In this document: positions 187 through 37,552 of the stretch, in pieces
How the letters are laid out: each line of letters opens with the position of its first letter
Numbering within the stretch: the stretch's first letter is position 1
NCBI GenBank assembly: GCA_033060915.1
Contig: CM065394.1
Coordinates: 9,029,501 to 9,093,500, forward strand
Length of the DNA: 64,000 bases
DNA from: Euryodendron excelsum
Taxonomy: Eukaryota; Streptophyta; Magnoliopsida; Ericales; Pentaphylacaceae
Direction: 5' to 3'
Notes under the pieces: generated by a model
What the model was told of the DNA's origin: nothing
The model's database searches: none
What the model saw: the letters and a program-made list of their open reading frames with translations, nothing else
Made by a program: the position numbers and the translations under genes

Positions 187-268
187 ACAGTCCATAAGTG
201 TCAGGCCCATTTCAAATAAACTCATTCTCTCTTAATCTTTTAGCTGTTAAATTCTCTAGCCTTTAAAT

Positions 269-840: not shown

Positions 841-1460
841 TGGTTGGCAAATATGGTTCTTGTCCCTAAGAAAGATGGCAAAGTTTGAATGTGCATTGAT
901 TTTCATGATCTCAACAAAGTGAGCCTAAAAGGTGACTTCCCCTAACCGCACATTGATCTCCTCATCGCCAACACCGCCGGCCATGGTATGTTTTCCTTCA
1001 TAGATGGGTTCTCAAATAAGATCAAAATAGCTGAGAAAGACCATGATGAAACTGCCTTTATTACCCAGTGGGGGTATATTGTTACAAGGTCATGCCATTC
1101 GGACTCCGCAACACCTGGGCAACTTACCAAAAAGTCATGGTAATGCTATCTCATGACATGATGCACCAAGTAGTTGAGGTCTATGTGGATGACATGATAG
1201 TGAAGTCCAGAGTATGAGAGGATAATTTACTTAACCTCCGAAAGGTGTTTGACTAGCTCTGCAAATACCATCTTAACCTAAAGCCTACTAAATGCACCAT
1301 CGAGGTATCTTCAGGGAAGCTATTGGGGTTTATAGTCAACAAAAAGGGGATAGAGATTGACTTAGCCAAAATCAAGTTTATTTCAAAATGCCACCCCTAT
1401 AGGAGAAACAAAAATTCAAACCTTTTTAGGAAAGCTAAACTTCATCAACAGGTTCATCAC
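841..1460 (+). pseudogene. Element A reverse transcriptase (decayed)
   Basis: Reverse transcriptase copies element RNA into DNA in virus-like particles. Visible motifs in order are CIDFHDLNK (motif like 'CVDYRDLNKA', about 891-918), PHIDLL and FSFIDGFSNKIKI (first catalytic Asp region, about 947-1030), then YVDDMIVKS at about 1180-1206, the polymerase active-site box with both aspartates present. Stops and frame changes interrupt it, for example in FP*PHIDLL near 943 and after MIVKSRV. Lineage: Ty3/gypsy, Tat-like by flanking domains. Not functional. Confidence 0.88.
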
Positions 1461-1479
1461 CTAAATAGCTCATCTCTGC

Positions 1480-1951
1480 AACTCTATTTTCAAGCTCCTT
1501 AAAAGGACACTCCCAAGGAATGGAATAAAGACTGTCAAATAGTCTTTGAGAAGATCAAAGAATACCTTTAAAATCCCCCGGTCTTGGTGATACCTACTCT
1601 CGGGAAACCTTTATTGAGGTGTTTAACAACACTTGACACTTCCATGGGAGCATCTTGGGGCAATATGATGAAACCAAGAAAAAGTAGCAAGCCATTTACT
1701 ACCTCAGTAAGAAGTTCCTGCCTTATGAAGTGAAGTATTCCACTCTTAAAAAAACCTATTACACCCTAACTTGGGCCACCCACCGACTCTAGCACTACAA
1801 GCTCTTCCATTCTACCTTCCTTATCTCTCAGATGGACCCTATCAAACACATCTTTGAGAAGCCTACTTTGTCTAGCTAAATTTCACAATGGCACATTATC
1901 CTCTTAGAGTTTGACATAGTTTTCACCACCTGTAAGGCTGTAAAGGGGCAA
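1480..1951 (+). pseudogene. Element A first RNase H domain (decayed)
   Basis: Downstream of reverse transcriptase, several short frames give the ordinary retroelement RNase H and connection region: YYLSKKFLPYE, ATHRL, SQMDPIKHIFEKP and LLEFDIVFTTCKAVKGQ. These match the conserved Tat order 'YYLSKKFTxYE ... WAxxRLR ... DPIKYIFEKP ... EFDIxYxxxKAIKGQ'. Catalytic residues cannot be judged, because the segment is broken by stops and small frameshifts. Confidence 0.75.
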
Positions 1952-2296
1952 ATGATAGAAAACTACCTTGTCGAGAACCCAATTGAAGATTATCAATCCA
2001 TGGAACTCCAATTCCCTGATAAAGACATACTATTCACAGATAATGAAATTGAAAAGCAAGAGGAACCTAGATGGAAGATGTATTTTGACGGTTCCTCCAC
2101 CACGAAGGTAGCCAGGATTGGGGTATTAGTGGTATCTGAGACTGGTAGCCATTACCTGATTGTGGTTAAGATAAAACTAGACCCTTGCACTAACAACATA
2201 GCTGAATATGAAGCTTACACCTTGGGATTGAGGTTGGCAATTGAAATAAAGATTGAGAATCTGGTTGATTTTGGAGACTTCGACCTTCTAATCTAA
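1952..2296 (+). pseudogene. Element A second (archaeal-type) RNase H domain
   Basis: The best preserved piece of the polyprotein, open for 114 codons. The core begins about 2070 with WKMYFDGSST (first catalytic Asp), followed by RIGVLVVSETGSHY, CTNNIAEYEAYTLGL (catalytic Glu) and VDFGDFDLLI (catalytic Asp). The D-E-D set is therefore still visible. A second RNase H is diagnostic of the Tat lineage of plant Ty3/gypsy. It is preceded by the linker ENYLVENPIEDYQ and ends at a TAA shortly after the third Asp. The ATG at 1952 is internal to the polyprotein. Confidence 0.88.
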
Positions 2297-2900
2297 GAAG
2301 GTATACCAGACTCGGAATGCCATACTTGGAATGCCAAACTCTCTCAATACCGCAGCAAATCAAGGCCATGTGCCAATTATTCCGAAGTATAGACTTCCAT
2401 CATATTCATCGGACTGAGAACAGTTTCAGGGACACTTTGGCCACTCTAGCTGCAACTATCAAGGTTGACAAGGGTACATAGATTTGTCCTCTTCAGATTT
2501 TCATTAGGGACACCCCCTCTTACTGCCTCCACACCACCTTAGAGCCGGATAGGAAAACATGGTTTCACGACATCAAGATAAAAGTTTAGAAAAGAGATTT
2601 CCCAAGCCAGCTCTCTTTCCAAGATAAGAAGACAATCTGCAAAATGTCTAGCCACTACTTCATAACAGAGAATGAAGTCTTCAAAAGGTTAATGTTAAGC
2701 CTGCTAAAATGTGTAGATGCAAGTGAAGCCAAAGAAATCATGGAAGGAGTGCACGAAAGAGTTTGCAGCGCCCACATGAATGGTCATACTCTTTCAAAAC
2801 AGATCCTTTGAACAAGGTATTATTGGACGACTGTGGAGTCCAATTATATCAGATATGTCCTCCGATGTCATAAATGCAAGATACACCTGCCTGTAGGTCT
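2297..2900 (+). pseudogene. Element A RNase H-integrase linker and integrase zinc finger (N-part)
   Basis: Heavily decayed linker. Near the end the translation YIRYVLRCHKCKIHLPVGL shows the CHxC half of the integrase HHCC zinc-binding domain, matching 'YVRKCHKCQ...' of Tat integrases. The frame is cut at 2900 by element B. When the two sides are joined through one copy of the target duplication, the frame reads on into LYPMTAA and then PFSIW at 25333 onward, the expected 'TSPWPFSMWGxDVIG' region. This shows the insertion point precisely. Confidence 0.75.
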
Positions 2901-5900
2901 TGTTGCACCCTGATTTTTAGCCCCGAGTCTGGGTCTTGACTCAAGCGAATCCTAATACTCTGTCTATCAAAACTCACCCTCTTAAGAGGACGAGTGTGAC
3001 AAGGTTTGAACTTGAAATGTATTTGATTAAGGGCTTTTTGAAAAAGGTTTGGAGTCACCGCCTAACTTTGATAAAGGTGTGTTAGGTCACCTAAACTAAG
3101 TATAGCCCGAAGTCTAAACTAAAGGTTTTTTTTAAAAGATTTTGGAACACTTCCTCTCGAGAGGGTTTTTGGAAAAACTGGTTGGTTAGCAACCTTTAGA
3201 GAATATTTGTGCCCTTTTAGAAAAATGACTCCATCTTGGTCTTTGAAAATAATGGTTCGGAGGTTGGTTACGTGTAGGGAAGATGATTGAAGACTATCAC
3301 CCTACCCCACCTTGCAGTACCTACAGGTCTATTCAGTCTAGGTTTCACTCACTTCAATCTCTAATTCCTAAATGTCCACCTGAAAAGATTTTGAAAAGGA
3401 TTCTGTTATCACTTTTGACTGTATGAATGCATGATGCAATTTTTGGAAAGAGTTGGGAATTTTAGAAAAGGGACTAAAAATAAAAGTTTGAAAAAGGGGA
3501 TTTGATTTAGAAATAGAAGTTGTGGCCGCACCTATGAAGGTTGCCTATGTATCTTATTTGGCGAGAATCATGTCAGTCATAGTTTGGGCTCAGGGTCCGA
3601 TTGAAAATAGGCACATTGGGGCCTTTAGAAAGTTTTGAAGACTCATTAGGGTCTCGTTTTGAAAAAGAGAACTTGAAAATTTTTACTTGAAATTTGGAAA
3701 TAACTTGAAAGTTTTGATTTGAAATTGGATGTTAAAGTGTTTTTGAAATACAACTTAAAGGTTTTTGGAAGTGCTTTTGAAATGGGATTGGAAGTATTTT
3801 TGAACATAGCTCAAGAGAGTTTTGGAAGTTTTGAAAACTTAACAAGGGATTTGAAAGTGGAATTTGGACTTGCAAAAGCTCTTGTGAACTTGTCTTGAAA
3901 AAGATTTTTGAAATAATTTTTGAACAACTTAAGAAAGGTATGCTGATATTTTATTGCCTTTGAGAGTTTAGCTAGTTGAGAACTAAGCTCCTTTAAGGCT
4001 ATGATTTTTGGAAAACATTTTTAGAAAATGAGCTAGAAACTTCCCTTGTTTGAATATCTCACTTAATCTTGGATAACCCTAACCATAGAAGGCCTAGGGT
4101 CTTTTCATGAAGGTGATGTTTGAAAATAGTTTTTGTAAAACCTTTAGGGTTTGAAACCCTAATATGAACCTTTTAGGCCTCATTTTATGTATCACTTTCC
4201 CTAGGAAATCCTCACCATGAAAGGGTTAGGATCGCCTTGGCATAATGAGAGTTTTTGAAGTCATTTTGGAATTAGTTTTTGGAAAACAGTAAGTGTGTAG
4301 CCACTTTGGATTAAGGCAAGTTTTGAAGGAACTTTTTAAAATATTTTTGGGTTGGAAGCATCCTAATCTTGAAGCATCCTAATCTTGGTTGGACAAATTA
4401 GGGTTCAAGTAGCCTAGGGTTAGATTGACTCAGGATTAGGTCAATTCAGGGCTTGATTGACCTAAGGTTAGACAACCTAGGGATGGAAGTGACTTAAGAT
4501 GCAAGTTACCTAGGGTTTAGCAAGGATGCCTTGAAGTAAAAAGATTTGATTTAATGCAATATGAAAATGTATGATTTTTAGTTAAAAAAGGAATGTTTTA
4601 TTTTTTGAAAGTTTTGAAAAAGAAAATTTTTACTTTAGGAAAGTATTGAAAAAGGAAAAGTTTCATTTTTGAAAGTTTTGTCAAAGGAAAGTTTTATTTT
4701 AGGAAAGTTTTGAAAAAAGAAAATTTCAGCTTGGGAAAGTTTCAATTTTATTTTAAAAAATAGAGGATTGGATTTTGTTTCTAAAAATAGTGAGATTTGA
4801 TTTTGTTTCCTAAAGGGAAAGATTTGATTTGCTTTCCAAAATGGAAAGATTTGATTTTGAGTTAAAAAAGGAAAGATTTTATTTTATTTCCAAAATGGGA
4901 TGGATTTGATTTGTTTTCAAAAACAAAAGATTGGATTTGTTTCCAAAATGAAAAGATTTTAATTGAAGAAGGAAATATTTGGTTTGAAAAAGATAAGATT
5001 TCAATTGAAAATCTTATGATTTTATGTATGACTTTTTGGAAACAACTTAAGTGAGCTATGCAATTTTTGAAAACATGATGCAACAAGAACATGGAAAACC
5101 ATTTTTATACGATGGATGCAAAATGAGTTTTAGGGGATAAGACAAGGCTTCCTAAGACGTAGATTTCTACGACTTCGAGAAAACGACCCTTGGACCAATT
5201 TTGGAAAAACATGGAATTTAAAGGGGTTTGAAAACTAAAGTTTGAAAGAGGTGTTTTAGGGCTTAAAACCATACTGTGCCCTTTGAAGGCCTCTTTAAAT
5301 ATGCCCCTTTCCTGAAGTGACCCTAACTATGGAAATGCTAGAATCACTTTAGGGTTGTGATTTTGAAAGTAAGTTAGCGTTGGAAATCCTACTGTGAACC
5401 TTGATGGTGATTTTGAATATGTCACCTTCCTAGGAAACCCCTAACCATGAAAATGCTAGAATCACCCTAGGGCTTGTGATTTCTTTGAAAAGCAAGTTTG
5501 AAAATAGCCTTGAAAGCAACTTTGGGGTGTAGTTTTGGAAAATGCTTTTGAATGCAGTTTTTAAAAACATGATGGTAATGAACAATGCTTGAACATGACA
5601 GTCAGAATGCAATAGGGACATGAATATATAAGGTTAAAGGTTTCACAACATTGTAAGGGACCTCAAGACCATACCATGATTGGTTAGGGTAAATGAAGAC
5701 CCCCGAAACACTGGTCTCCCTAAAGCTTCCCCTCTACATGGACCAAGGGTCCTCTTGTTTCAAGCATGCAAGAATAGGGGGTAAAGGATAGGGATTAAAA
5801 GAGAGAATAGTCCAAGTGGACTAGGAAGGAGAAGAGAGAGAGGAGGAGGGCTTAAACTTAAAGAAACCCAACCTTGTTTTCTTGTTAGCTTGAATGCTTC

Positions 5901-7036
5901 AATGGAGAACTTACTTGAACCTTGCAATAGCTTCAAGGGCTTCCAAGGGCTGAACTGGATCTTCAATGGAGTGAGGAAGTTAGGGTATCAGTGTTTTGGG
6001 TTAGGGTTTGCTGGAAGCTCCCTTGGAGGTTTGGAAGCTAGGGTTTTAAGGGATTTTTGGGGGTTGTAAAGAGTTTGACAAAGCTTTTTTTTTTCATTTT
6101 TCTGAACCTAGAATACGATGAAGGATGAATTGTATTTATAGGCAAAAATTAAGGAGGTGGCGCCACTAGAAGTGGAGCCTAGCCATTTCTTAGCTAGGAG
6201 TCAGTGGCGTTAGGCCAATTTTTGGCTAGGCGCCAGTAGGAGTGGTGCCACCCTGGTATGGCAATGATTCTAAAGATTTAATTTGACTTGGGCCACAAGG
6301 CAAAGATTTGGGCACCACTCCTAGTGGCTCCAAGCCATTTTTTCTTTTTTTTAGCCTGGCTCCACTGTGAGTGGCTCCGGTTTGATTAAGAAAGCTGTCG
6401 GGCTATGGGGCCTAGCTAGCAAAGAGATAAGGGCACTCAGGAGCACCCTGGGGGTTCTTAGTTTGATACTGAAAGCTGGAATGGTTTGAAAAAGATGGCA
6501 GGTCCTCTAAGGGCAAAATGGTCATTTAAATAAAAAAGTATCAGAATGGGCTCAGAATGGACTAGGATAGCATCAGAGGGTTGGATATACTATTAAGAGT
6601 GTTTTGGAGGATTACCAATTTGATATCGAAAGCTAGAGTGGTTGAAAAGGACGATCGACCCACCAGGGGCAAAATGGTCATTCAAGCCAGAAGACACCGA
6701 AATTGGTCCGGAGTTGACCAGGATGGGATTTGAATATCATGAACACTGTTAACAGTGTCCTAGGGGATTGCCAGTTTGATATTAAAGGCCAACATGGTTG
6801 AAAGGGACAACCAACCCACTAGGGGCAAAACGGTCATATGACTAGGATACATCGGAACAAGTCCAGAATTGACTAGAAAGGGATTTGGAGGTTGGAGACA
6901 CTCATGGGAGTGCCCTTGGATGTCTTCTGGTTTGATACCCAGAGCTAGTGTGGTTGGTGAGGGCGATCGGGGCACCTAGGAGTAAAATTATTAATTTGAT
7001 TAGGAATTACCGAAACAATTCCAAAGTTGATTTGAA
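2901..7036 (-). repeat. 3' LTR of element B (left, truncated)
   Basis: Read on the + strand it starts TGTTGCACCCTGATTTTTAG and parallels 21037-25332 almost to its end. Homology stops at about 7036. The last roughly 300 bp, including the CCCCATTTTTG terminus, are missing, so a deletion took the U3 tip together with pol. Contents from right to left in element sense: U3 tandem units with the GGGGCAAAA motif at about 6500-6990, a TATAAATA box (6133-6140, - strand), telobox motifs, and a long GGAAAG/GATTTG low-complexity stretch (3460-5100). Short ORFs inside are chance frames. Confidence 0.82.
6133..6140 (-). promoter_or_regulatory. LTR TATA box, element B 3' LTR
   Basis: TATAAATA on the - strand, at the same place as in the C, E, H and J LTRs. 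It lies between the CACTAG-containing GCC palindromes and the AAACCCTAG motifs. The other B LTR has a T-run here (about 24173-24183) and has lost the box. Confidence 0.55.
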
Positions 7037-8252
7037 TTTGGTAGCTACACTCATGAGTAGGTAGTCTTCTTCTCTTGTCATATAATAATGGTAGCTACAC
7101 TCACACTCACTGGTAGCCCTTTCCATAAGTGATTGGGGAGGGAATCGACAAAAGGTCAATCTAGGTGTGCGATAATCCCTAAATTTTTAACAATGGTGGA
7201 ACCATCTAAAATAGATCATAAAGGCAGATTCTATATTCTAAGAATTCTCGAGATGTGTGCATTAAAATGAACATGAATCACCGATATGTTAAAAATTATC
7301 AAAACCATTGACTCATATTTATGCAAGTGCTACTACACGCAAGAATCAATCTTGAACAAGCATGCACATCAATATGTTCGTTATTGAATATTAGCATTAG
7401 TGATTGTGCACGTGTAGGACAAATATTATCAAAAATTCTTTTTGGCTTTTCTGATTTCACTTTTTTTTTCAAAGATTCAACCATCCTAAGCTTGCCAATG
7501 TGCGCTAATCTTACTTTTTGAGGGTGTAGCTACTTGTTGCTTTCCCAGGACATCCTTCAAGGGTCACTCGAACTTTGACAAGCTATGTGATCTTCATCTC
7601 TCACCCCTTTGTATTTCCACCCTCTCTACACTTTCTATTTTTCTGTCCCCTATTTCTAGAGTCATAGATTGTTTTTGTCGAATGTGGTGCTTGTACTATT
7701 ATTTCCCCTGAGTTGAGGGCATCACAAATTGAGGGAAGGTCCCTCAAAGAAGTTATCATCCACAAGAATGTGAAACAAAGGGGATAAACTAGAAATCACT
7801 ACTCATTCTATTTTGATATATTTATATGTCACCAAAGCTCTTAATTGAAAGCAAATATGATAGGTAAAACAAGATGCAAAATAATAAAGGATAAGAAGAA
7901 AATGGAAGAATCTGAAAATCATCTCTCTTCATTGTTCTTTAGACAAACCCTTCAGACAGGTTTCAAAACCACACCAACGTCTTCTATGCTCCATTTGGCA
8001 AGTTCATTTCCTGAGTGCCAATGACCTTGGCATCAATCAACGCTTGTATTTTGTGTTTTTGGATGAGACAATGCTCAATAACATACCCCTGTCTTTCAGA
8101 ATGGTACTCACAAACAAAAGTAGGGTTGAAGGTAGCGGGCAAAGGACTCAACTATGGTGGGGCAGTTATGGGGGCTAGAAGGTTGGCTTTTAAGAGGTCA
8201 TCATAGTCTTCGTTTTGGTGTAGGCTAGGGGGAAAAGGCATGAGGTCGGCGG
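7037..8252 (-). pseudogene. Element B internal remnant: gag C-terminal part and unassigned following region
   Basis: Read leftward from 8252, the frame gives ADLMPFPPSLHQNEDYDDLL, then CEYHSERQGYVIEHC followed by KHKIQALIDAKVI. This is the single zinc knuckle and the 'LKHKIQDLIDAK' signature of Tat gag. Joined across element C it continues directly from 18423. From about 7985 to 7060 the sequence is broken by stops. A 61-codon frame at 7299-7484 is visible but I cannot assign it to a domain, though by position it should be the start of protease. The segment ends in an odd repeated joint with the LTR at 7037-7110. Confidence 0.65.
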
Positions 8253-8257
8253 CTTGC
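8253..8257. repeat. Target-site duplication of element C (left copy)
   Basis: CTTGC immediately before the TG of C. It is identical to CTTGC at 18418-18422, immediately after the terminal CA. A perfect 5-bp duplication is the expected product of Ty3/gypsy integrase. Confidence 0.9.
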
Positions 8258-8859
8258 TGTCGCGCCCAGATTTTTCGCACTCGAGGAATACTCACCCAAG
8301 CGGGAAAAATGTTGTACTCTCTCGTTAGAACTCACCCTCCTAGAAGAATGAGTGCGACTAGGTTTGAATTGAAAAACTGGTTTGAATAAAGGGCTTTTGA
8401 AAAAGATTCGGAGTCGCCACCTAACTTGATTAAGGTGAGTTAGGTCACCTAAAAACTAAGCATAATCCGAAAACTACACTTACGGTTTTGGAAAACAATT
8501 TTTGAAAATATCTCCTCGAGAGAGGGTTTTTAAAGAAAACAGGTTGTTTGGCAACCTTTGGAAAATATTTAACCCTTTTTAGAAAAATAACTCCTTTTGC
8601 TCTTTGAAATCAGTGATCCTAGGTTCGGAGGTTGGTTACGTGTAGGGAAGATGCACTAAGCTATCACCCTACCCCGCCCCTTCGGTACCTACATGTCAAT
8701 CTACCGTAGATTCACCTATGAGAGTCTTTAATTAACTATAGTTCAATCTCATTCACTTTGATTTGAAAAGATAGATTTAGACTTGTTTTGGAATGAGAAG
8801 GTTTAAGAAAACCTAGACTTAGGAAAGGGAAGAGACTTAGGAAAGATTTGACTTGGCTT

Positions 8860-10500
8860 GGAAGATTTGGAAAGATTGGATTTTAGGAGATGTTCAAATT
8901 AGGAAAGGTCCGATTTAGGAAAGTTTCGAATTAGGAAAGTTTTATTTTTGGAAAGTTTTCGAATTAGGAAAGTTTTGAATTTAGGAAAGTTTTAGGTTTA
9001 GGAAAGTTTTGAATTTAAGAAAGTTTAGAAATTGGAAAGTTTCGAGTTCAAAAAGTTTTCGAAAAAGGAAAGGTTGTCAGATTAGGAAAGTTCCCAAATT
9101 AGGAAAGTTTTGAAAATCAGAAAGTTTTGAATTTAGAAATGTTTTGAAAAAGGGAAATTTTGAATTTGGAAAGCTTTGAAAACAAGGAAGTTTTGAAAAT
9201 AAGAAAGTTTCATTTTGGGAAAGGTTTGAAAAAGGAAAGTTTTCAATTTAGGAAATGTTTGAATTAAGAAAGTTTCAACTTAAGAAAGTCTTAAATTAAG
9301 AAAGCTTTGAGTTTAGAAAAGTCTTAGATTTGAAAAGATGTTGAAGTTTTGGAAAGTTTAGAGTTTAGAAAGATTTGGGTTTAGAAAGATTTAACTTAAG
9401 AAAGTTTTGAATTTAGGAAGCTTAGAATTTTAGAAAGATTTGAAATTTAGAAAGTTTAGGATTTAGAAAGTTTTAGAGTTTGAATTTTAGAGAGTCTTGA
9501 AATTAGGAAAGGCTTGAGTTTAGGAAAGGTTTGAAAACTTAGGTTTAAGAAGTTAAGATTTGAAAAGAGTGTAGAATTAGGAAAGATTTGAAAATTGAGT
9601 TTTAAAACTTAGGAAAGATTTTTATGTTCAAGTTTAGGAAACTTAAGATTTAGGAAAAGGGAAGTTTAGGAAGGATTTGAATTAAGAAAGAGTTGGATTT
9701 TGAAATTTAAGGAAAGATTTAAAATTTAGGTTTAGGAAACTTATGGTTTAGGAAGGAATTGAATTAGGAAAGGTTTGGATTAAGAAGAGATTGGATTTGG
9801 TTTTTTAAAGAGAAGATAGGATTTGACAAGGATTTGGAAAGGGGGATTCCAGAAACCCTAGATTTGAAAAATTGTAGTTTTGACGTAGAAAAAAGGTTTT
9901 GGAAACATGTATATTTTTTATGTGAAAACATGAGATTTTGGAAACCTAGGTTTGGGGCAAAGTTTGAAAATCATGTTTTTGGGAAGAAAATTTAGGGTTT
10001 CCTAATTGTGGGTTCTAGGACTTGATTTGGGGCTCTAAGGAAAGAGTTTTTAGAAAGTGTGTTTTTAGAAACGAAAGCTTTCTAGAAGGGAATCCTAGAA
10101 AAGAGTTTTTGGAAAGTGTGTTTGAAGAGGGAGTTTTTGGAAAAAGATTTTAAAGAGAAGGAGTTTTGGAAAGTGTGTTTTTGGAAACGAAGACTTTGGA
10201 AGGAAAACCTAAAGAGGAGTTTCTAGAGGGAAGAATTTTGGAAAGAGAGTTTTTAGAAAGACTTTTGGAGAGAGTTTTTAGGAAAGTGAATCGAGGGAGT
10301 GTTTTTAGAAAGTGAATTTTTAAGAGAGAGAGTTTTGGAAAGGAGTTGGAAAAGGGAGGTTTTGAAAAATAGATTTTGGAGGGGAGCTTTTGAAAACAAC
10401 TTTGGAGAGGAAAGTTTTAAGAAAGTATGTTGAAAAAGAGATTTTTAGGAAAAGATTTTTGAAGAGAGAGAGTTTTTGGAAAGTATGAAAATTTTTCACT
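8860..10500. repeat. Degenerate short tandem repeats (GGAAAGTTTTGAATTTA type)
   Basis: A stretch of about 1.6 kb in which a unit of roughly 15-22 bp around GGAAAGTTTTGAATTTAG recurs dozens of times with variation. The + strand is purine-rich (GAAAG, TTTGG, TTAGG) with almost no other information. Equivalent fields occur at 3460-5100, 22740-23060, 51780-52200 and, in the opposite orientation, at 55250-56640 and 58150-59660. No long ORF runs through it. Confidence 0.75.
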
Positions 10501-11372
10501 TTCCTAAAGCGATTCTAACCATAAGAGGGCTAGAACCACTTTAAGAAAGTGGTTTTGGAAAATAATAACATTTGAAAATATAGACCAAAAAGGTGACTTT
10601 TAATGTAACACTTTCCTAAAGCAACCCTAGCCATGGAAAGGCTAGAATCACCCTAGGATTGTGATTTTGAAAACATGTTTTTGAAAAGGAGCTTTTGATG
10701 CAATTTTGAAAACAAGTTTGAAAACGTTTTGGAAAACAACTTTGAAAACAGTTTTTGGAAGATGCAAGACTATGATATGCACAATGCAATTTGGGGTCGT
10801 GAACATACAAGGCTAAGGTTTCACCACATAATCAAGGGGGCCGGACCCACGTGGTCTTTGGTTAGACTAGAAGAAAGCCCGCGACACGGTGACTCTCCAA
10901 CAGTCTAATCCTACACATGGACCGGGAGTCCCTTTGTTTCAAGCATGCAAAGAAAGGGGGGGGAAAGAGATGGGGGATTAAAATAGAGAAAACCCAAGTG
11001 GGATGGAGAGAGAAGAGAGAGGGGAGAAGTGCAGAAAATTAAAGAGAAAGCCTACCGTATGTCTTCTTTATTTTACGCGCCTTGCTTGTCTTCGGTCTTT
11101 AGTCTTTGTCTTGATCTTCACATTCAGTCTTTAGTACTTGTCTTCAAGCTTTGGATGGCAGCTCTTCAAGTCTTCAAAGGATGGTTGAAGGCTAGTGTAT
11201 GAGTGTATGGGGGCGTGTATAAGTGTATAGGAGGCTAGGGTTTGTGTAGGGTGGCTAGGGTTTGGGAAAACCTAGAGAGGCTAGGGTTTTGGAGGTGCTC
11301 GAGCTCTGTATATCGAAATATAGGATTTTTAGGTTAAGTTTGCAGACCCCTTTCACGTTGAATGAGGCTCTG

Positions 11373-11380
11373 TATTTATA
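11373..11380 (-). promoter_or_regulatory. LTR TATA box, element C 3' LTR
   Basis: TATAAATA on the - strand followed by CAGAGCCTC, which is also present after the boxes in H and in the other C LTR (16636-16643). A GGCGCC palindrome lies about 55-80 bp upstream and AAACCCTAG motifs about 80-140 bp downstream. Confidence 0.65.
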
Positions 11381-11433
11381 AAAGGAGGATAAACCTGGCG
11401 CCTGTTGCAGTGGCGCTAGGCCAAATTCTACAC

Positions 11434-11456
11434 TGGCGCCACTACTAGTGGCGCCA
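11434..11456. promoter_or_regulatory. GGCGCCACTA-type palindrome upstream of LTR TATA (element C 3' LTR)
   Basis: Inverted repeat with arms TGGCGCCACTA and TAGTGGCGCCA. The other C LTR has two such elements (16697-16719 and 16735-16757) separated by a short spacer. The left LTR has one copy, apparently a fusion of the two by deletion of about 38 bp. The same motif occurs inside the element at 13399-13459. Confidence 0.6.
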
Positions 11457-11699
11457 GCCAATTAGGAAAGATTTAAGGTCGGCAAGCAACGTATCTTTGA
11501 CTAGATTTGGGCGCCTGTACTAGTGATTACCATGTAAATTTTAGCCTGGCTTCACTAGGAGTGACTCCGGAAAGTTCGGGAATAATTTGAAGGAGCCGGG
11601 GATGACCCGGGGGGCCGGAAAGGAGCAAGAATACTTAAAATAGTGTCTTAGAGGTATTTGACTTGAAAAGTGAGGACAAAATGTGTCAGAAAGGTTGAC

Positions 11700-12200
11700 C
11701 GGGCCTTTAGGGGCAAAACGGTCAATCGAACTGGGAAGCTGCCGGGGCGAACTCGGACTGTCCCGGAAGAAGACTTGGGATCTGGAAACATTATTCAGAA
11801 TGTTCACGGAGGTTGCTGGTTCGATTCCCAGAGCCAGCGCGGTCGGAAAAAGGAGACTTGCCCACCAGGGGCAAAACGGTCATTTTGTACCGGGTTTGCC
11901 GGAACTGACTCGGAATGGTCCGGAAAGGTGAAGGAAGGTTGAGAACACTATAAAAAGTATTCCCGGGACATTACCGGTTTGATACCCGGAACCGATGTGG
12001 TCAAAGAAGGAGACCGGCCCTCTAGGGGCAAAACGGTCATTTTGTACCGGGTTGGCCGGAACTGACTCGGAATGATCCGAAAAGGTAAGGGAAGGTTGAG
12101 AACACTATAAAAAGTATTCTCAGGAGGTTACCGGTTTGATACCCAGAGCCAGTGTGGTTCCCGGGGCATTCGGATGCTTAGGGGCAAAATGGTCATCTTA
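11700..12200 (-). repeat. U3 tandem units of about 157 bp (element C 3' LTR)
   Basis: The landmark GGGGCAAAACGGTCA recurs at about 11709, 11868, 12027 and 12182, giving a period of about 157 bp. Each unit also has a dyad (AACACTATAAAAAGTATTC in C; a cleaner ACACTGTTAACAGTGT in B) and a GGTTTGATACCC block. In one unit (11818-11828) this block is an exact GGTTCGATTCC, which equals a pol III B-box. The same unit is present in all Tat LTRs here. Confidence 0.75.
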
Positions 12201-12269
12201 ACCAGAAAGTCTCAGAAAAGGTCCTAAGGGTAGTCTGGTCATTTTTCACCGAAGTGAGCTAACAGACAC

Positions 12270-13000
12270 GGGTGTTAACCTAGGTTTTGAGTGTTTCTGC
12301 CACTCTAACGGTGTGAGTATTTTCACTACTCAGACGGGGTTGATGATTTGTGAATATTTCCGCTACTCGGACGGGGTTGAGTATTTCCGCTACTCGGACG
12401 GGGTTGATGATTTGGGAGTATTTCCGCTACTCGGACGGGGTTGAGTATTTCCGCTACTCGGACGGGGTTAATGATTTGGGAGTATTTTCGCTACTCGGAC
12501 GGGGTTGAGTATTTCCGCTACTCTAACGGGTTTGTGAGTATTTCCGCTATTCTAACGGTTCTATGAGTATTTCCGCTACTCTAACGGTTTTGTGAGTAGT
12601 TTTGCTACTCGGACCGTCTCGAGGAATAAACTGTGTCGAGAGTGGGACTGGAAGGGGTCTTACCGTCTCCGAAGAGACGTGCCTGGATTGGAGTCGTCTC
12701 GAGGAATAAACTGTCTCGAGAGTGGGATTGGAAAGGGATCTTACCGTCTCCAAAGAGACGTGCCTAGATTGGAACCGTCTCGAGGAATAAACTGTCTCGA
12801 GAGTGGGATTGGAAAAGGGTCTTACCGTCTCCGAAGAGACGTGCCTGGGTTTTTAGTGTTTCCGCCACTCTAACAGTTTTGTGAGTACTTCCGCTACTTT
12901 AACGGTTTTGTGAGTATTTCCGCTACTCTAATGGTTTTGTGAGTAGTTTTGCTACTCGGACCGTCTCGAGGAATAAACTGTCTCGAGAGAGGGATTGGAA
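12270..13000 (-). repeat. U3 arrays of element C: 30-bp units and 80-bp double-hairpin units
   Basis: Two interleaved arrays. The first is GAGTATTTCCGCTACTC followed by GGACGGGGTTGA or TAACGGTTTTGT, repeated about ten times between 12270 and 12590 and again at 12860-12960. The second is an 80-81 bp unit starting GAGGAATAAACTGT at 12621, 12701 and 12782, with a partial unit at 12969. Each 80-bp unit has a CTCGAG...CTCGAG inverted repeat and a CGTCTC-CGAA-GAGACG stem-loop. The right LTR (17590-18210) has the 80-bp units but visibly fewer 30-bp units. Confidence 0.8.
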
Positions 13001-13198
13001 TTGGAATAAGAAAGGACAATGCCCCTAAGGGCATTTTGGTCATTTTGCCTCTATTTGGGCCTGACAGGCCCGCGAAGTGATGGAAAGAAGGAATTTGGAC
13101 CTAGAGGATTGGTTTCGATTGGAATATGTCCACAATGACTTGATAACAAGTCTGGACGGAGTGTAGACTGCCGAGCGGTCAAAAATGGGGTGCTTACA

Positions 13199-13240
13199 GC
13201 TGCCCCTCTTTTTCTGTCTTTGCTTGTCAAAGACAGAAAA
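13199..13240 (-). promoter_or_regulatory. Polypurine tract with overlapping hairpin, element C
   Basis: On the - strand, AGAAAAAGAGGGGCAGC stands directly before the 3' LTR start TGTAAGCACC. This is the purine-rich primer site for plus-strand DNA synthesis. On the + strand, 13210-13222 and 13228-13240 form a perfect 13-bp stem with a 5-nt loop (TTTTCTGTCTTTG / CAAAGACAGAAAA), so one stem arm is part of the purine tract. Element E keeps the same arrangement at 34600-34641. Confidence 0.75.
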
Positions 13241-13379
13241 CGATAAGAGTAAGAGTCCTATGTTGACCGCGAGGCAGTCGAAGGGACGGACACTGGAAAT
13301 CCTTCGACAACGGGGGTCGAAAACGGATAACAGGCCAAAAAGGCCTTCAAAAACAAGTTTTGGCGGGAAAATGGGCAAA

Positions 13380-13662
13380 ACTGCCCAGAATTTATAACTG
13401 GCGCCACTAGTAGTGGCGCCTTTGGCAGAAATGAACTGGCGCCTCTGCTAGTGGCGCCAGGCTTAAAGTTAAAACCAGAAAATTTTTGGTTTGAACACCC
13501 ACGGGATTTGAAGAGTGTTTTGCAAATTTGTGAGGCATTGCGAGGAATCCGTCTTGGACATTGAAGGAGCACTCCTTAGGGACCACGGGTGATTGCCGGA
13601 GGGAGTTCACGTCGCCGGAAAAGTCGCCGGAAGTGAAGATTTCGCCGGAGAACTTCCAAAAG
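13380..13662 (+). promoter_or_regulatory. Putative promoter and 5' non-coding exon of the antisense PMD gene in element C
   Basis: The stretch has two GGCGCC palindromes (13399-13420 and 13437-13459), the same motif found beside the LTR TATA boxes, with an ATTTATAA box touching the first. It then becomes GC-richer (GCCGGAG repeats at 13593-13650) and ends in AAAAG/GTGAGT at 13662/13663, a near-consensus plant splice donor. The matching acceptor lies at 14539. I infer a 5' leader exon. The exact start of transcription cannot be seen. Confidence 0.45.
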
Positions 13663-14539
13663 GTGAGTTTTCAAATTTTGTTGATTTTGATGTGTAGAAC
13701 TTCGTTTAAATCATGTGAATAGTAGAAATTAATGCTTTGATATGTTTTGAACACTTTGGTGATGTTGTTTTTGCAATTTTATGGTTATTTATTGAATTTG
13801 AGTGATTATATGTAAATGTGTGAAGGGGGTTTTCTGCAGGAATAAGAAATTTGTTCCTATAAGCATGGGTATTAGGTTTTCTGGCTATGTTTTTGTGCGA
13901 TGTGCCTTAGAAAAATGTGTTTAACAACCGTATGAAGTTTCATGATTTTTTGAAAACTCGGTGAATTTTTGATTTTTTGAAAATTAGAAAAATATTTAGA
14001 AAATTAGAAAAATATTAGGAAATTCAAGAAATTGATGAAATTTTTAAAGTTTGAAATTTGGAAAAATGTAGGAATATTTTGAAAACATTTGAGGTGATTT
14101 TGAAAAATTTTGGAAGCCTTTTGAAAACCATTGATTTATTTGAAAAATAAAACATGAGTTTTGAAAATTTTTAAAATTGGAAAGTGTGCACGGGTGCCAT
14201 TGTCATGTGATTGTAGCGTTGGAAGGTGCATATTTCGTGTTTTGTGTTGATGTCATGGGCGTTGTAGGGGCCATTTTTAAACGGGATTCTGCCAAAATTT
14301 TTAGAAATTATGAAAAGAGTTGGTTAAAATTTTAGAAATAAAATCTTTTTGAAGGGAAAAGGCAGAGAACCCTTGAGATGTGATTTGGAGTTGAAAAATC
14401 AAGATGTGTGAAAATTTTGTTTTTGATTTGTTATTCAAAATCGTTTATTTGTTCTGTGTCATTTGTTTGTTTTATTTTATTGTTATTTAAACTGCATGGA
14501 TGGTATATTAACATCACTTACCTTGGCTTACCTTTTCAG
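13663..14539 (+). other. Candidate intron in the 5' leader of the antisense PMD gene
   Basis: Starts GTGAGTTTTC and ends in a T-rich tract with CTTACCTTTTCAG at 14538-14539. The two ends are good plant donor and acceptor sites about 877 bp apart. The interior is AT-rich with T-runs and no long frame, in contrast to the GC-richer coding region that starts two bases after the acceptor with ATGGCAGACGCAGG. Inference from sequence only, without transcript evidence. Confidence 0.5.
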
Positions 14540-14540
14540 G

Positions 14541-15833
14541 ATGGCAGACGCAGGTGATGACGGTTCTGAGAGGAGACGCCGCTCGGGGAAGGTGGCCCGG
14601 ACTGATTCTGCTGGCGGTTCTAGTCGATCTAGAGGTAGTCGACGATCCATCGGACGATCCTCATCCAGCCAGAGCGGGCAGGGGAGTAGACTACCTATCG
14701 ACCCTTTTCCTTCGGTTGAGCAGGCTTTTGCTGAGGAGGTTGACGTCGAGGAGGAGGTACCGGGCCTTGGGGACTAGGTGATCAGCTATGGGAGAGGTTC
14801 TTCCCGGCATAGGCAGACAGACGCCGACTTGGGAGATTTGCAGATACCAGATGTCCCACCTCTCGGGGATCTGGCCTATCACCCTATTGTATATTCCAGA
14901 CAGCATTTGCCACCTCTGCGAGTACATACAGCTTTTCGAGGGGCTGTTCATCAGGTTTTTGTGACCATGCAGCAAGCTGCCCCATCATACTGCGCCTTCT
15001 TAGCAGAGATCGGGTTTGGCTCCTTTATAGGATTACAGGCTAACCGCCTGAACTGGCATTTAGTACTGGCATTGGTTGAGCGGTGGTTTAGGGAGACTGG
15101 GACCTTCCATTTCGTCGGCTTCGAGTTAGGCCCCACTCCTTTAGATTGGGCGATTATTACAGGACTTTCCTTTGTCGGCCGGCGGATTACCCTGCACCTG
15201 GTCAGCAGGGACGAGGCTTGTTTGCTGTTGGACTTGCCTCAGCCCGAGCATCCTGCATTCCCAGTCTCTTGGATTAGTCAGGGTGAGCGTACTTTTGCTA
15301 CTGAGCCATCGCCTGCCAGGCGGGATATCATGAGACGGCGACTTGTGTTATACATCATCTTTAGCTGCTTCTGCAACAACAACAAGTCGCTCGTGCTGTG
15401 TCGTTTGGTGAGTATAGTAGCAGATTTGGGAGCTTTGTCTGAGTTCGACTGGGGGTCCTTTTCTTTTGGCTGCTTTCTTCGATCGATGCGGGTTCGAACT
15501 TCTTCTCGTTGGGGCAGCATGACTAGCTTTTGGCCCTTCCTTGTCTGGTGGAGTTACGAGTACTTGCCAATGCGTCGCCCTGCAGTCGTTGAGGATGATC
15601 TCTATCCTCGTGCTTTGAGGTGGGCTCGTGACCGGGTAGCCCAGCAATCGGAGATTACTGACTTTGTGATGCTCCGGGCTAACCTGGAGCTGATTGAGGC
15701 GAGAGATGTGACCTGGCGGCCATTCATTGGATCAGTCCATTGCGAGACAGTCCGGTACCTTGTCCTGTTATCCTTGTCGAGAGCTGCTTTTCTCAGTGAT
15801 GACACCTGGGAGTCCTATCTTGGAAAACAATAA
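14541..15833 (+). pseudogene. Antisense extra ORF of element C: plant mobile domain (PMD) protein, one internal stop, C-terminus lost
   Basis: The ATG at 14541 directly follows the candidate splice acceptor. The first 78 codons encode an acidic/basic Arg-Ser-rich tail (MADAGDDGSERRRRSGKVAR, then Ser/Arg repeats). A TAG at 14775-14777 interrupts the frame, which continues in the same phase for about 350 codons. The body matches the plant mobile domain (PF10536-type): LVERWFRETGTFHF, then LGPTPLDWAIITGL (pattern 'ALVERWRxETxTFHL...GEMTxTLxDVAxLxGL'), RLVLYIIFSCFCNNNKS, a WGSF region and ATG-independent WRPF. PMD proteins occur in host silencing factors (MAIN/MAIL family) and in mobile elements. 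The last codons (GKQ) come from LTR sequence after a deletion joint near 15820. Antisense to the retrotransposon. Confidence 0.82.
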
Positions 15834-18417
15834 GATTTGAAAATATAGACCAAAAAGGTGACTTTTAATGTAACACTTTCCTAAAGCAACTCTAGCCATG
15901 GAAAGGCTAGAATCACCCTAGGATTGTGATTTTGAAAACATGTTTTTGAAAAGGAGCTTTTGATGCAATTTTGAAAACAATTTTGAAAACGTTTTGAAAA
16001 ACAACTTTGAAAATGGTTTTTGGAAGATGCAAGACTATGATATGCACAATGCAATTTGGGGTCGTGAACATACAAGGCTAAGGCTTCACCACATAATCAA
16101 GGGCGCCGGACCCACGTGGTCTTTGGTTAGACTAGTAGAAAGCCCCCGACACGGTGACTCTCCAACAGTCTAATCCTACACATGGACCGGGAGTCCCTTT
16201 GTTTCAAGCATGCAAAGAAAGGGGGGAAAGAGATGGGGGATTAAAATAGAGAAAACCCAAGTGGGCTGGAGAGAGAAGAGAGAGGGGGGAAGTGCAGAAA
16301 ATTAAAGAGAAAGCCTACCGTATGTCTTCTTTATTTTGCGCGCCTTGCTTGTCTTCGGTCTTTAGTCTTTGTCTTGATCTTCACCTTCAGTCTTTAGTAG
16401 TTGTCTTCAAGCTTTGGATGGCAGCTCTTCAAGTCTTCAAAGGATGGTTGAAGGCTAGTGTATGAGTGTATGGGGGTGTGTATAAGTGTATAGGAGGCTA
16501 GGGTTTGTGTAGGGTGGCTAGGGTTTGGGAAAACCTAGGGAGGCTAGGGTTTTGGAGGTGCTCGAGCTCTGTATATCGAAATATAGGATTTTTAGGTTAA
16601 GTTTGCAGACCCCTTTCACATTGAATGAGGCTCTGTATTTATAGAAGGGGGATAAACCTGGCGCCTGTTGCAGTGGCGCTAGGCCGAATTCTACACTGGC
16701 GCCACTAGTAGTGGCGCCAGGCCATTTTTTGGCTTGGCGCCACTACTAGTGGCGTCAGCCAATTAGGAAAGATTTAAGGTCGGCAAGCAACGTATCTTTG
16801 ACTAGATTTGGGCGCCTGTACTAGTGACTACCATGTAAATTTTAGCCTGGCTTCACTAGAAGTGACTCCGGAAAGTTCGGGAATGATTTGAAGGAGCCCA
16901 GGATGACCCGGGGGGCTTGAAAGGAGCAGGAACACTTAAAATAGTGTCCTGGAGGTATTTGACTTGAAAAGTGAGGACAAAATGTGTCGGAAAGGTTGAC
17001 CGGGCCTTTAGGGGCAAAACGGTCAATCGGACTGGGAAGCTGCCGGGGCGAACTCGGACTGTCCCGGAAGAAGACTTGGGATCTGGAAACGTTATTCAGA
17101 ATGTTCTCGGAGGTTCCCGGTTTGATTCCTAGAGCCGGCGCGGTCGGAAAAGGAGACCGACCCACAAGGGGCAAAACGGTCATTTTGTACCGGGTTTGCC
17201 GGAACTGACTCGGAATGGTCCGGAAAGGTAAAGGAAGGTTGAGAACCCTATAAAAAGTATTCTCGGGACATTACCAGTTTGATACCCTGAACCGATGTGG
17301 TCGAAGAAGGAGACTGGCCCTCTAGGGGCAAAACGGTCATTTTGTACCGGGTTGGCCGGAACTGACTCAGAATGATCTGGAAAGGTAAGGGGAGGTTGAG
17401 AACACTATAAAAAGTATTCTCAGGAGGTTACCGGTTTGATACCCAGAGCCGGTGTGGTTCTTGGGGCATTCGGATGCTTAGGGGCAAAATGGTCATCTTG
17501 ACCGGAAAGTCTCGGAAAAGGTCCTAAGGGTAGTCTGGTCATTTTTCACTGAAGTGAGCTAACAGACACGGGTGTTGACCTAGGTTTTGAGTGTTTCCGC
17601 CACTCTAACGGTGTGAGTATTTCCGCTACTCAGACGGGGTTGATAATTTGTGAGTATTTCCGCTACTCGGAAGGGGTTGATGATTTGGGAGTATTTCCGC
17701 TACTCGGACGGGGTTAATGATTTGGGAGTATTTCTGCTACTCTAACGGGTGTGTGAGTATTTCCGCTACTCTAACGGTTCTATGAGTATTTCCGCTACTC
17801 TAACGGTTTTGTGAGTAGTTTTGCTACTCGGACCGTCTCGAGGAATAAACTGTCTCGAGAGTGGGACTGGAAGGGGTCTTACCGTTTCCGAAGAGACGTG
17901 CCTGGATTGGAGCTGTCTCGAGGAATAAACTGTCTCGAGAGTGGGATTGGAAAGGGATCTTACCGTCTCCAAAGAGACGTGCCTGGATTGGAACCGTCTC
18001 GAGGAATAAACTGTCTCGAGAGTGGGATTGGAAAGGGGTCTTACCGTCTCCGAAGAGACGTGCCTGAGTTTTGAGTGTTTCCGCCACTCTAACGGTTTTG
18101 TGAGTACTTCCGCTACTCTAACAGTTTTGTGAGTATTTTCGCTACTCTAGCGGTTTGGTGAGTAGTTTTGCTACTCGGACCGTCTCGAGGAATAAACTGT
18201 CTCGAAAGAGGGATTGGAATTGGAATAAGAAAGGACAATGCCCCTAAGGGCATTTTGGTCATTTTGCCTCTATTTGGGCTTGACAGGCCCGTGAAGCGAT
18301 GGAAATACCGAATTTGGACCTAGAGGATTGGTTTCGATTGGAATATGTCCACAATGACTTGAAAACAAGTCTGGACGGAGTGTAGACTGTCGAGCGGTCA
18401 AAAATGGGGTGCTTACA
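15821..18417 (-). repeat. 5' LTR of element C (right, truncated to 2.6 kb)
   Basis: From 15834 to 18417 it aligns with 10567-13198 of the left LTR with few differences. Homology begins within TTGGAAAA at about 15819-15827, a short sequence shared by both sides of the joint. The part corresponding to 8258-10555 is absent. The LTR ends at CA 18417, followed by the target duplication. It holds a TATA box (16636-16643) and two palindromes (16697-16757). Confidence 0.88.
16636..16643 (-). promoter_or_regulatory. LTR TATA box, element C 5' LTR
   Basis: TATAAATA on the - strand in the LTR that would drive the element. The two palindromes at 16697-16719 and 16735-16757 are upstream of it in transcription sense. 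Since primer site and gag are deleted, a transcript from here would run into the antisense strand of the PMD ORF. Confidence 0.65.
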
Positions 18418-18422
18418 CTTGC

Positions 18423-19541
18423 CTATTAGGGTTGAAATGTGGTCAGACTGCAATTGGCCCAGTAGTAGGTGCTTGAATAGCCATGGGTGGCTGGGGCTGG
18501 TCTTGCTGGTGATATTACGATGGCTAAACATGCAAGATGGTAGACACTTCTCCCTCCTTTATCCTTATTTCTCGTGTTGTGGGCACTTTCTTAGCTATAC
18601 TTGCAGAAAGTTCTTCAGTTTTGGCATAGGGATTAGCGATACTCCTAATTTTTAGGCCATTCTCTATCATCTTCCATTGCATGATCAACTTTGAGAAGCT
18701 CTTCCCTATGTCTGTGCAAATTTTTTTGTAATATAATCCCCAAAAGGTTTGCACGAATAGCTGCACATACTTTTTATCTTCCAGCAGGGGTTTGACTTGT
18801 GCTATAGATTCCCTCCATCTTAGGGCATACGTCTTGAAGCTCTTTTTTTCTCCTTTGGTCCTTAGCATGAGAGCCTAGCGATCAATGACCAGATTAATGT
18901 TCTGTTGGTATTGGGTTTTGAATACTAGCACCAGCTCATCCTAGGTAGTAATTTTCCTTAAATCTAGGCATGCAAACCATTGAAGAGCAAACCCTGTTAG
19001 GTTGTGCTGAAACAGCTGCATGAGGAGTTTTCTGTCATTCCCATGACCATTGAGTGCCCCGGTATAGAGATGCAGATTGCTTATGGGATTACCAGTGCCA
19101 TTGTATTTATGAAAGTCGGGCATCTTCAACTTAGTCGGTCGTGAGTGGTCTAGGAAGAAGTAGAATTTGTCTAAGAAGTTAGAGCAAAGGTATCATGCCT
19201 ATAGAGGTTATGCAATGACTCCTATAACCCTTGTATTTTCAAACGAAGGGGGTCTAGGGAAGTCTTCTTCTTGGTGGGCGATAGTAGTATGGTTTCTTCC
19301 TCTTCCTCTTTAACATTCACTACCCTGGCTTCTTTATTCTTTTTAGTGCTATTGAGTGAAGCACGACCCTAGGTGGGGCAGTTTCCATTTCTTTAGGCAG
19401 TGGTTTAGATAAGGAAGGAGCTATGGCAGGATCTTTAGAAGAGATTGTACCAGTTTGAACATTTTGTTGAGTTAAGCCCTCATTTCATTAATCTCTTCCG
19501 GAGATACTGCCAGGTGCGGGTTCATCAGAGTGAGTTGCCAT
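18423..19541 (-). pseudogene. Element B gag (N-terminal and central part, decayed)
   Basis: Gag forms the retrotransposon particle. A plausible start is the ATG at 19541 (MATHSDEPAPGS). The core is well seen: MKMPDFHKYNGTGNPISNLH at 19129 downward, then LLMQLFQHNLTGFALQWF, DELVLVFKTQYQQNINLV, KSFKTYALRWRESIAQVKPL and FSKLIMQWKMIENGLK. This is the Retrotrans_gag domain of Tat elements ('KMPDFxKYDGTGNP...LMQLFxxSLTGAALxWF'). Frames at 19129 and 18868 are in the same phase, interrupted by TAG codons that look like Trp and Gln mutations. The frame passes into element C at 18422 and resumes at 8252 with the zinc knuckle. Confidence 0.82.
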
Positions 19542-24000: not shown

Positions 24001-25332
24001 TTGATCTTTGATGGAGAGAGAAAGGTAGGGTTTCAGTGTTTAGGGTTAAGATTTGATGGAAGCTCCCCTGGAGACTTGGAAGCTAGGGTTTTAAGGGATT
24101 TTTGGGGGCTACAGAGAGTTTGGAAGAGTTTCTTTACGATTTTTCTGGACTTGGCATACACTGGGGGGTGCATTGTTTTTTTAGGCAAAGATTGAGGAGG
24201 TGGCCCCACTTCTAACCTTTTTTGGTTAGGCACCACTACTAGTAGTGCTAGGCCAATTTTTGGCCAGGGGCCACTAGGAGTGGCACCACCCTGGTATGAC
24301 AATGATTCTAAAAATTTGATTTGACTTGGGCCATAAGGCAAAGATCTGGGCGCCACTCCTAGTGGGCCCAAGCCATTTTTTGGCCTGGCTCCACTATGAG
24401 TGGCTCTGGTTTGATCTGTAATGATGTCAAGCTGCGGGGACTAGCTAGAAAAGAGATACGGGCACTAGGAAGCACCCCAAGGGTTGTTGGTTTTATATAG
24501 AGAGCCAGAATGGTTTGAAAAAGCTAGCTGGTCCATTAATGGCAAAATGGTCATTTGAACCAAGAAGTACCGAAATGAGCCGGGATAGCATCAGAGGGAC
24601 ATAAACACTATTAAGATTTTTTCAAAAGATTACTGGTTTGATACCCAGAGCTGGAGTGATTGAAAAGGACGAGCAACCCATTAGAGGCAAAACGATCATT
24701 TGAGCCAAAAGACACCAAAATTAGTTCAAAGTAGGTCAGGATGGGATTCAAAGGTTGGGAACACTGTTAAGAGAATCCCAGGAGATTACTGGTTTGATAC
24801 CCAAGGCTGCCATGGTTGGAAGTGATGATTGGCCCATTAGGGGCAAAACGGTCATTTGACTGTGAAACACCGGAACAAGTCCAAAATTGACTGGAAAGGG
24901 ATTTCGAGGGCGAAGGCACTCGTTGGACTGCCCCTAGAGATCTGTCAATTTGATATCCATAGCTGGTGTGGTTAGTGAGAGCGAGCAGGGCACTTAGGGG
25001 TAAAATTGTTATTTTGAACGAGAATTACCGAAACGGGTCTAGAGTTGATTTAAATGGCATTTTGAGTGCGGTGGATTATCTTGGACAATTTTGGAAGTGT
25101 TGGACTAATTGCTCTAAGGACTTAGGTACCTTTTCGAAGAGCGTGCCAGATTAAATTGGACTGGAATGATGCCTCACGAGCATTTTGGTCATTTGGCTTC
25201 AAGTGGGCCCAAGTGACTGGTTGACTGGACTGGAGTTTGGAAGATCGATTAGGATTTGAATGTGTTGTAGCATTTGAAAGTGGGTCTAATCGGGCTAGAG
25301 ATTGCCAAATAGGCAAAAATGGGGTGCTTACA
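21037..25332 (-). repeat. 5' LTR of element B (right, 4.3 kb)
   Basis: On the + strand it starts TGTCGTGCCCC and ends GGGGTGCTTACA, so the element-sense start is TGTAAGCACCCC. It aligns with 2901-7036 over nearly its full length and has an extra terminal stretch of about 300 bp lost from the left copy. U3 units are at about 24540-25010. The TATA box position has degenerated to a T-run. Confidence 0.85.
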
Positions 25333-37294: not shown

Positions 37295-37552
37295 TCTTAT
37301 AGTGGACTTAACCATCTTAGAGTAAATTATGACAACCATTTTTAGTACTTCACTTGCTGAAGGACAATCGACCAATAGGCTATCATTGTTTAGTGGCACA
37401 AATTATAACTATTGAAAAGTTAGAATGAGAATATATATTCAAGCTACTGATTATGAGTTATGGAAAGTTAATGTTAATGTTCCTAGTTGTCAACTAAGAT
37501 TGTAGAAGGGAAAAACGTGCTTAAGGAAGAAAGTGAATAGGATGCTAGTGAT

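What the first reader, a model, noticed from the sequence alone, without database searches (positions are those of the whole stretch)
13199..15833. An intron-bearing plant mobile domain gene carried antisense inside a Tat retrotransposon
Between the polypurine tract and the lost gag-pol of element C, the + strand (antisense to the element) holds a gene-like unit: palindrome-containing start region, leader exon, GTGAGT...TTTTCAG intron of about 877 bp, ATG two bases after the acceptor, and a PMD-type protein. Extra ORFs are known in the Tat lineage, and PMD proteins exist both as host silencing factors and in mobile elements. A retroelement carrying an antisense spliced PMD gene raises the possibility that it interferes with host silencing. 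That function is my inference. An antisense intron is notable because it is not removed from the element's own genomic transcript.
Basis: partly seen in the sequence, partly recalled or inferred. Interest (0 to 1): 0.8.

Follow-up and report, generated by a model that had tools for sequence, protein, structure and literature searches.

The report
Antisense PMD gene in plant retroelement
A plant jumping gene without its own copying enzymes keeps, on its opposite strand, a protected gene for a plant mobile domain protein that is probably spliced, and the same palindromic DNA boxes stand beside that gene and beside the element's own promoter; backward genes of this kind were known, but this arrangement makes their suspected anti-silencing role testable.

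Summary
Window 14541-15824 (+) is a plant mobile domain (PMD, PF10536) gene inside an LTR retroelement on the minus strand (8258-18417, TSD CTTGC on both sides). The window copy is dead: in-frame TAG at 14775, and the last ~143 codons lost in a ~7.8-kb deletion into the 5' LTR. The same plant genome (1.06 Gb) has 1,975 places with the same acceptor plus start codon. Of 20 copies fetched (picked for long frames), 14 could be measured from that ATG: 13 have 571 codons, one 593. dN/dS is 0.14. Splicing is inferred (GT-AG, ATG-poor leader, ATG-rich intron); no transcript was seen and no intron-less copy was found. PMD extra ORFs in Ogre elements, and the anti-silencing idea, are already in print. 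The intron, the pol-less PMD family and the shared palindromes appear new within the open papers I searched; palindromes were not searched for by word.

The parts
8253..8257 (.). target site duplication CTTGC, left
8258..13198 (-). 3' LTR of element C, 4.94 kb
   Evidence: ends TG..CA and match to LTR of the L009 element
11435..11455 (.). perfect palindromic unit in the 3' LTR, upstream of TATAAATA (minus strand, 11380)
13199..13214 (-). polypurine tract
   Evidence: read directly
13400..13420 (.). palindromic unit 1 at the 5' end of the PMD gene
13438..13458 (.). palindromic unit 2, 38 bp from unit 1
13466..13662 (+). leader exon; its start is not known
   Evidence: ATG-poor in 24 sequences
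13663..14539 (+). putative 5'-UTR intron, 877 bp, GT-AG
   Evidence: not shown by RNA
14541..14774 (+). PMD gene, codons 1-78 (basic N-terminal part)
14775..14777 (+). in-frame stop TAG that breaks this copy
14778..15824 (+). PMD gene continued, PF10536 match, cut off at 15824
15824..15829 (.). deletion junction (about 7.8 kb missing compared with L009 and L029)
15829..18417 (-). remaining part of the 5' LTR; K2P 0.040 from the 3' LTR
16698..16756 (.). two palindromic units 38 bp apart in the 5' LTR (second with one change), upstream of TATAAATA (minus strand, 16643)
18418..18422 (.). target site duplication CTTGC, right

Best explanation
This is a dead copy of a high-copy LTR retroelement family, probably of Tat/Ogre type, whose examined copies carry gag (or a gag remnant) on the sense strand, no pol, and an accessory PMD gene on the antisense strand next to the 3' LTR. 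Shown: the PMD frame is open in many copies, under purifying selection, starts one base after an intron-like acceptor, and has palindromic units at its 5' end that also stand upstream of the LTR TATA box. Inferred: the gene has its own promoter near the palindromes, its message is spliced in the 5' UTR, and the protein (basic N-terminus, PMD, heptad-like C-terminus) works in the nucleus on chromatin of its own element, most likely keeping the family expressible against silencing. Since the gene is kept although pol, and in some copies the gag capsid domain, was given up, its benefit probably goes mainly to the element that carries it.
For: PMD match; 14 of 14 measurable copies, out of 20 fetched, open 571-593 codons from the ATG; dN/dS 0.137 in 300 pairs of 25 copies, 0.13 in six sequences not picked for frames, transversions 0.0048 at second positions against 0.0236 at fourfold sites (18 copies); shared changes far more synonymous than singletons; no pol-like match in 20 copies; 21 of 21 neighbouring gag-PMD pairs 2.44-2.58 kb apart on opposite strands, out of 64 gag hits; ATG-poor leader, ATG-rich intron; palindrome columns 0.085 different against 0.238 in the spacer. 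Antisense genes with their own promoter are described for Grande (PMC7264820, passages).
Against: No RNA, protein or binding data. Splice-site conservation is weak evidence. The pol probe was itself a decayed stretch, and pol-bearing relatives were not searched for. The 20 copies were picked for long frames. gag is also under selection (0.168), so PMD is not unique in that. Palindromes stand in other LTRs of the window whose PMD content is unknown.
Confidence: 0.5

Rival explanations
1. The unit matters as antisense RNA rather than protein: transcripts from the PMD promoter pair with sense RNA and dampen or tune the element.
For: Proposed for plant antisense ORFs in general (PMC7264820, passages); the intron and leader would then be part of a regulatory RNA.
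Against: Strong selection at the amino-acid level is not explained by RNA alone.
Confidence: 0.15
2. There is no intron: translation starts at 14541 from a transcript that begins inside the supposed intron; GT and AG are chance.
For: GT-AG ends are no more invariant than many intron dinucleotides; no intron-less copy exists (0 against 1,975), though none is expected for an intron antisense to the copied RNA; the acceptor AG is changed in 5 of 25 copies.
Against: The leader upstream of the donor is depleted of ATG (8 against 46.9; lowest of 200 shuffles 32), the intron is not (580 against 589), over related sequences; the intron is U-rich and C-poor as plant introns are (composition).
Confidence: 0.2
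3. The palindromes are sites for a host transcription factor, or stem-loops in the element RNA, and have nothing to do with the PMD protein.
For: They stand in several diverged LTRs of the window whose PMD content is unknown, and the exact unit occurs at 4,502 places against 1,975 PMD starts.
Against: Nothing decisive. Their presence at both promoters of one element points to a shared regulator but does not name it.
Confidence: 0.5

Closest known systems
Extra ORFs with PMD (pfam10536) in Ogre elements of the Tat lineage (Neumann 2019, PMC6317226: passages and section 13 read; Steinbauerova 2011 seen only as cited)
   Same: PMD in an extra ORF of a Ty3/gypsy element; reported in 57% of Ogre elements
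   Different: Those elements were classified by pol domains; here the examined copies lack pol. The section read names no intron in the extra ORF and no palindromes.
Antisense ORFs between pol and 3' LTR: Grande gene23, Retand, TRP28 ORFs (PMC7264820 passages; PMC11963269 abstract and passages)
   Same: position and orientation; Grande gene23 is transcribed from its own promoter and its protein is nuclear
   Different: Retand ORFs carry Transposase_28, not PMD; pol present in most clusters there
PMD-A clades of Gypsy elements and host PMD proteins MAIN/MAIL1 (PMC5418596 and PMC7156037, passages)
   Same: PMD domain; Gypsy-encoded PMD
   Different: clade membership not tested; MAIN and MAIL1 are host silencing factors
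VANC anti-silencing proteins of VANDAL DNA transposons (PMC5735166, passages)
   Same: TE with short motifs in tandem, fast-changing non-coding stretches
   Different: VANC binding and loss of methylation are shown by experiment; here only the repeats are seen, in an LTR retroelement, with an unrelated protein
TR-GAG non-autonomous elements (recalled; one search gave a search listing only)
   Same: LTRs and gag, no pol
   Different: recalled as short; here about 18 kb with LTRs of about 5 kb and an antisense PMD gene

Membership tests
PMD protein family (PF10536) | profile match over the curated cut-off | tested here: met
   79.8 bits against 34.9 in the window; 82.9 and 82.7 in full-length copies
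Antisense 3' extra ORF of plant Ty3/gypsy elements | frame antisense to gag, adjacent to the 3' LTR | tested here: met
Tat lineage (Ogre/Retand) | RT/RH/INT phylogeny and additional RNase H | not testable with these tools
   no pol in the copies examined
Tat lineage (Ogre/Retand) | very long LTRs, up to about 5 kb | tested here: met
   4.94 kb
Tat lineage (Ogre/Retand) | primer site for tRNA-Arg as in Ogre | not tested
   sequence after the LTR end read; complement to a tRNA not checked
PMD-A clade (Gypsy-encoded) | place in the PMD tree | not tested
   no reference clade sequences in hand
Spliced gene | GT-AG intron ends | tested here: met
   GT 24 of 25, AG 20 of 25 copies
Spliced gene | spliced transcript | not testable with these tools
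   no RNA data; junction pattern absent from genomic DNA
TR-GAG-like non-autonomous element | gag frame with Retrotrans_gag and no pol | tested here: inconclusive
   PF03732 in 2 of 4 gag frames scanned; no pol match in 20 copies with a decayed probe
VANC-like anti-silencing system | protein binds the repeated motif and removes methylation | not testable with these tools
   only the repeat arrays were seen

The most novel reading that the evidence does not exclude
The element encodes its own anti-silencing regulator on its back strand: the PMD protein, or a complex that it joins, recognises the palindromic units and opens both the LTR promoter and its own antisense promoter. A pol-less family spreads by keeping this one gene while borrowing the copying enzymes of a partner. 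Its 5'-UTR intron, antisense to the copied RNA, is never lost by copying (1,975 intron-bearing starts, 0 spliced junctions).
Probability: 0.22. Interest if true: 0.8.

Novelty: new variant of a known kind. Interest (0 to 1): 0.5.

Why it matters
What Gypsy-encoded PMD proteins do is open; they are relatives of the host silencing factors MAIN and MAIL1. Copies that lack pol but keep a selected PMD gene, with a defined palindromic array at both promoters, give a concrete bait sequence and a clear prediction. If PMD acts through the array, this would be an anti-silencing system in an LTR retroelement, comparable in logic to VANC in DNA transposons.

Tried and rejected
Rejected: 'element C lost its gag-pol' as the full account. 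Rejected: neutral decay of the PMD frame. Rejected: a special constraint on the intron; its lower divergence (0.068 against 0.123 at fourfold sites) mostly goes away when split by base. Led nowhere: structure model of the window PMD, pLDDT 34, so no fold search was run; PDB sequence search, 0 hits; protein database, 2 homologues only; plasmid tblastn, no match; tRNA scan, 0; Rfam on 8200-18500, 0. Paper searches: the ten answered ones were made; none listed by title or abstract start an intron in an antisense PMD gene, a pol-less PMD family or shared palindromes. Steinbauerova 2011 and Gomez-Orte 2013 were seen only as cited, so an earlier report cannot be excluded. The search for palindromes in LTRs failed on a term and was not repeated.

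Full report
What is there. The window lies in a 1.06-Gb plant genome whose species is not given. Element C is an LTR retroelement on the minus strand, 8258-18417, flanked by the 5-bp duplication CTTGC. Its 3' LTR (8258-13198) is whole; of the 5' LTR only 15829-18417 is left. The two LTRs differ by K2P 0.040 over 2,552 aligned bases, about 1.5 million years at a recalled rate of 1.3e-8. Between them stand the polypurine tract and, on the + strand, the PMD gene. Compared with L009 and L029, about 7.8 kb is missing at 15824/15829: the end of the PMD gene, the gag region, the primer site and about half of the 5' LTR. This copy is thus broken twice: TAG at 14775-14777 and a lost C-terminus of about 143 codons.

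The PMD gene is real. The open frame matches PF10536 (E 2.8e-22); two full-length relatives match over profile 1-285 of 347. The genome search scored 116 of 9,025 first-look candidates; by my count of its table 55 of the 116 have no stop in the matched part. I fetched 20 copies, picked for long open frames. In 14 of the 20 the frame could be measured from the ATG after the acceptor: 13 have 571 codons and L012 has 593. The other six were not measured because my pattern did not fit their acceptor. Over 25 copies (the 20, plus L003 and L005-L008) mean dN is 0.029 and dS 0.216, ratio 0.137, 300 pairs. Six sequences not picked for frames (the window, L003, L005-L008) give 0.13, 15 pairs. Transversions alone say the same: 0.0048 at second positions, 0.0236 at fourfold sites, 18 copies (L012 and L016 left out). 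The tree of copies is nearly a star, so much of this divergence seems to have arisen in parallel lines that still needed the protein. Singleton changes (155.5 synonymous, 192.5 not) are much less constrained than shared ones (172 and 66), as expected for copies that decay after insertion.

The intron is likely but not shown. GT stands in 24 of 25 copies, AG in 20 of 25 (four more keep an AG one base later, one has AC), ATG in 25 of 25. This is weak, since 261 of 830 intron dinucleotides are invariant in 24 copies. Better evidence is the ATG count in 24 sequences (the window and 23 copies; L007 and L016 left out for unrelated or deleted sequence upstream): the leader holds 8 where shuffles give 46.9 (lowest 32 of 200), the intron 580 against 589. 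These sequences are related, so the counts are not independent; in the window alone the leader has 0 against 2.2, reached by 4.9% of shuffles. Unspliced, the window's message would carry 25 ATG in the intron before the PMD start. Genome-wide, acceptor plus ATG occurs at 1,975 places and the spliced junction at none, both with up to 3 mismatches. That is what an intron antisense to the copied RNA predicts; it neither proves nor excludes splicing.

The examined copies lack pol. In L009, on the sense strand, the order is 5' LTR, primer-site region, gag-like frames, about 2 kb with no frame above 132 aa, PMD (antisense), polypurine tract, 3' LTR. Two kinds of gag region exist among the 20 copies: six like L009, thirteen of the other kind, and L027 rearranged. 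The second kind has an intact 692-aa frame in L012, L015 and L024, with PF03732 in the two scanned (L012, L024); the first has frames of 433-446 aa in L010, L014 and L017, without PF03732 in the two scanned (L010, L017). The 64 scored gag hits, of 15,671 first-look candidates, are listed with frames of 690-711 aa, 16 of them without an inside stop by my count. Where a gag hit and a listed PMD hit lie within 20 kb (21 of 64), they are 2.44-2.58 kb apart on opposite strands, 21 of 21; the other 43 have no listed PMD hit nearby, both lists being capped. A probe from window 1-3000, which holds pol remnants, finds nothing in the 20 copies; the probe is itself decayed. Copies of both gag kinds are mixed in the PMD tree. 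gag is under selection too: 0.168 against 0.132 for PMD in the same 13 copies.

Shared palindromes. Two 21-bp units, 38 bp apart, stand at the 5' end of the PMD gene. Units of the same kind, also 38 bp apart in the right LTR, stand 55-113 bp upstream of TATAAATA in the LTRs of element C. Similar, less perfect arrays stand in other LTR-like stretches of the window; a TATA box follows in the slices at 6.1, 33.5 and 54.2 kb and was not seen in those at 24.2 and 57.1 kb. In 18 copies the two 100-base steps over the PMD-side palindromes and the first half of the leader have the highest transversion rates of the 51 steps (0.039 and 0.070; the next is 0.034), and total differences of 0.118 and 0.181 against 0.044-0.126 elsewhere. 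Within this stretch the palindrome columns differ 0.085, the spacer 0.238, the rest of 13390-13560 0.199 (24 sequences). In a sliding test of two 21-base blocks the palindromes rank 8th lowest of 117 placements; the five lowest printed all overlap them. Of 463 arm pairs 372 are complementary. The unit with perfect arms occurs at 4,502 places in the genome, its backward control at 0; the PMD-side second unit at 666 places, control 0.

How it most likely works. An accessory gene with its own antisense promoter and a 5'-UTR intron makes a nuclear PMD protein that favours its own element. The anatomy fits: basic N-terminus, PMD, heptad-like C-terminus (my reading of the alignment; the structure model failed). 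Keeping the gene without pol argues for a benefit to the carrier. That it counters silencing is inference, proposed before for TE-encoded PMDs. That it acts through the palindromes is a further, untested step; VANC shows that a TE protein with tandem motifs can work so.

Known and new. PMD extra ORFs are known in 57% of Ogre elements, and antisense ORFs, one with its own promoter, in Grande and Retand. I saw no report of the intron, of a pol-less PMD family or of palindromes shared by the two promoters in the listings; these cover open papers only and none asked for palindromes by word.

Noticed in passing
6158-6332, 24267-24370, 33456-33687, 54211-54271, 57173-57194: Imperfect palindromic arrays of the same kind in other LTR-like stretches; a TATA box follows in three of the five slices read.
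   Followed up: partly
11691-12304 and 16991-17604: 157-bp tandem repeats in the LTRs with a stretch like a tRNA T-arm (GGTTCGATTCC, motif recalled); no tRNA found by scan.
   Followed up: no
12314-13000 and 17614-18219: Short-period repeats with CTACTCGGACGG and CGTCTC boxes near the outer LTR end.
   Followed up: no
8848-9553: Dense 16-17-bp repeats with AGGAAAGTTTTGAA in the inner half of the LTR.
   Followed up: no
13470-13495; same place in the copies: A second inverted repeat, ACCAGAAAATTTCTGGT, at the start of the leader in many copies; L019 has changes on both arms.
   Followed up: no
G000:C10:3349513-3378289: Cluster of the strongest PF10536 matches with long open frames, perhaps host PMD genes.
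   Followed up: no
37541-37936: Copia-type gag fragment, PF14223, E 4.3e-18.
   Followed up: no
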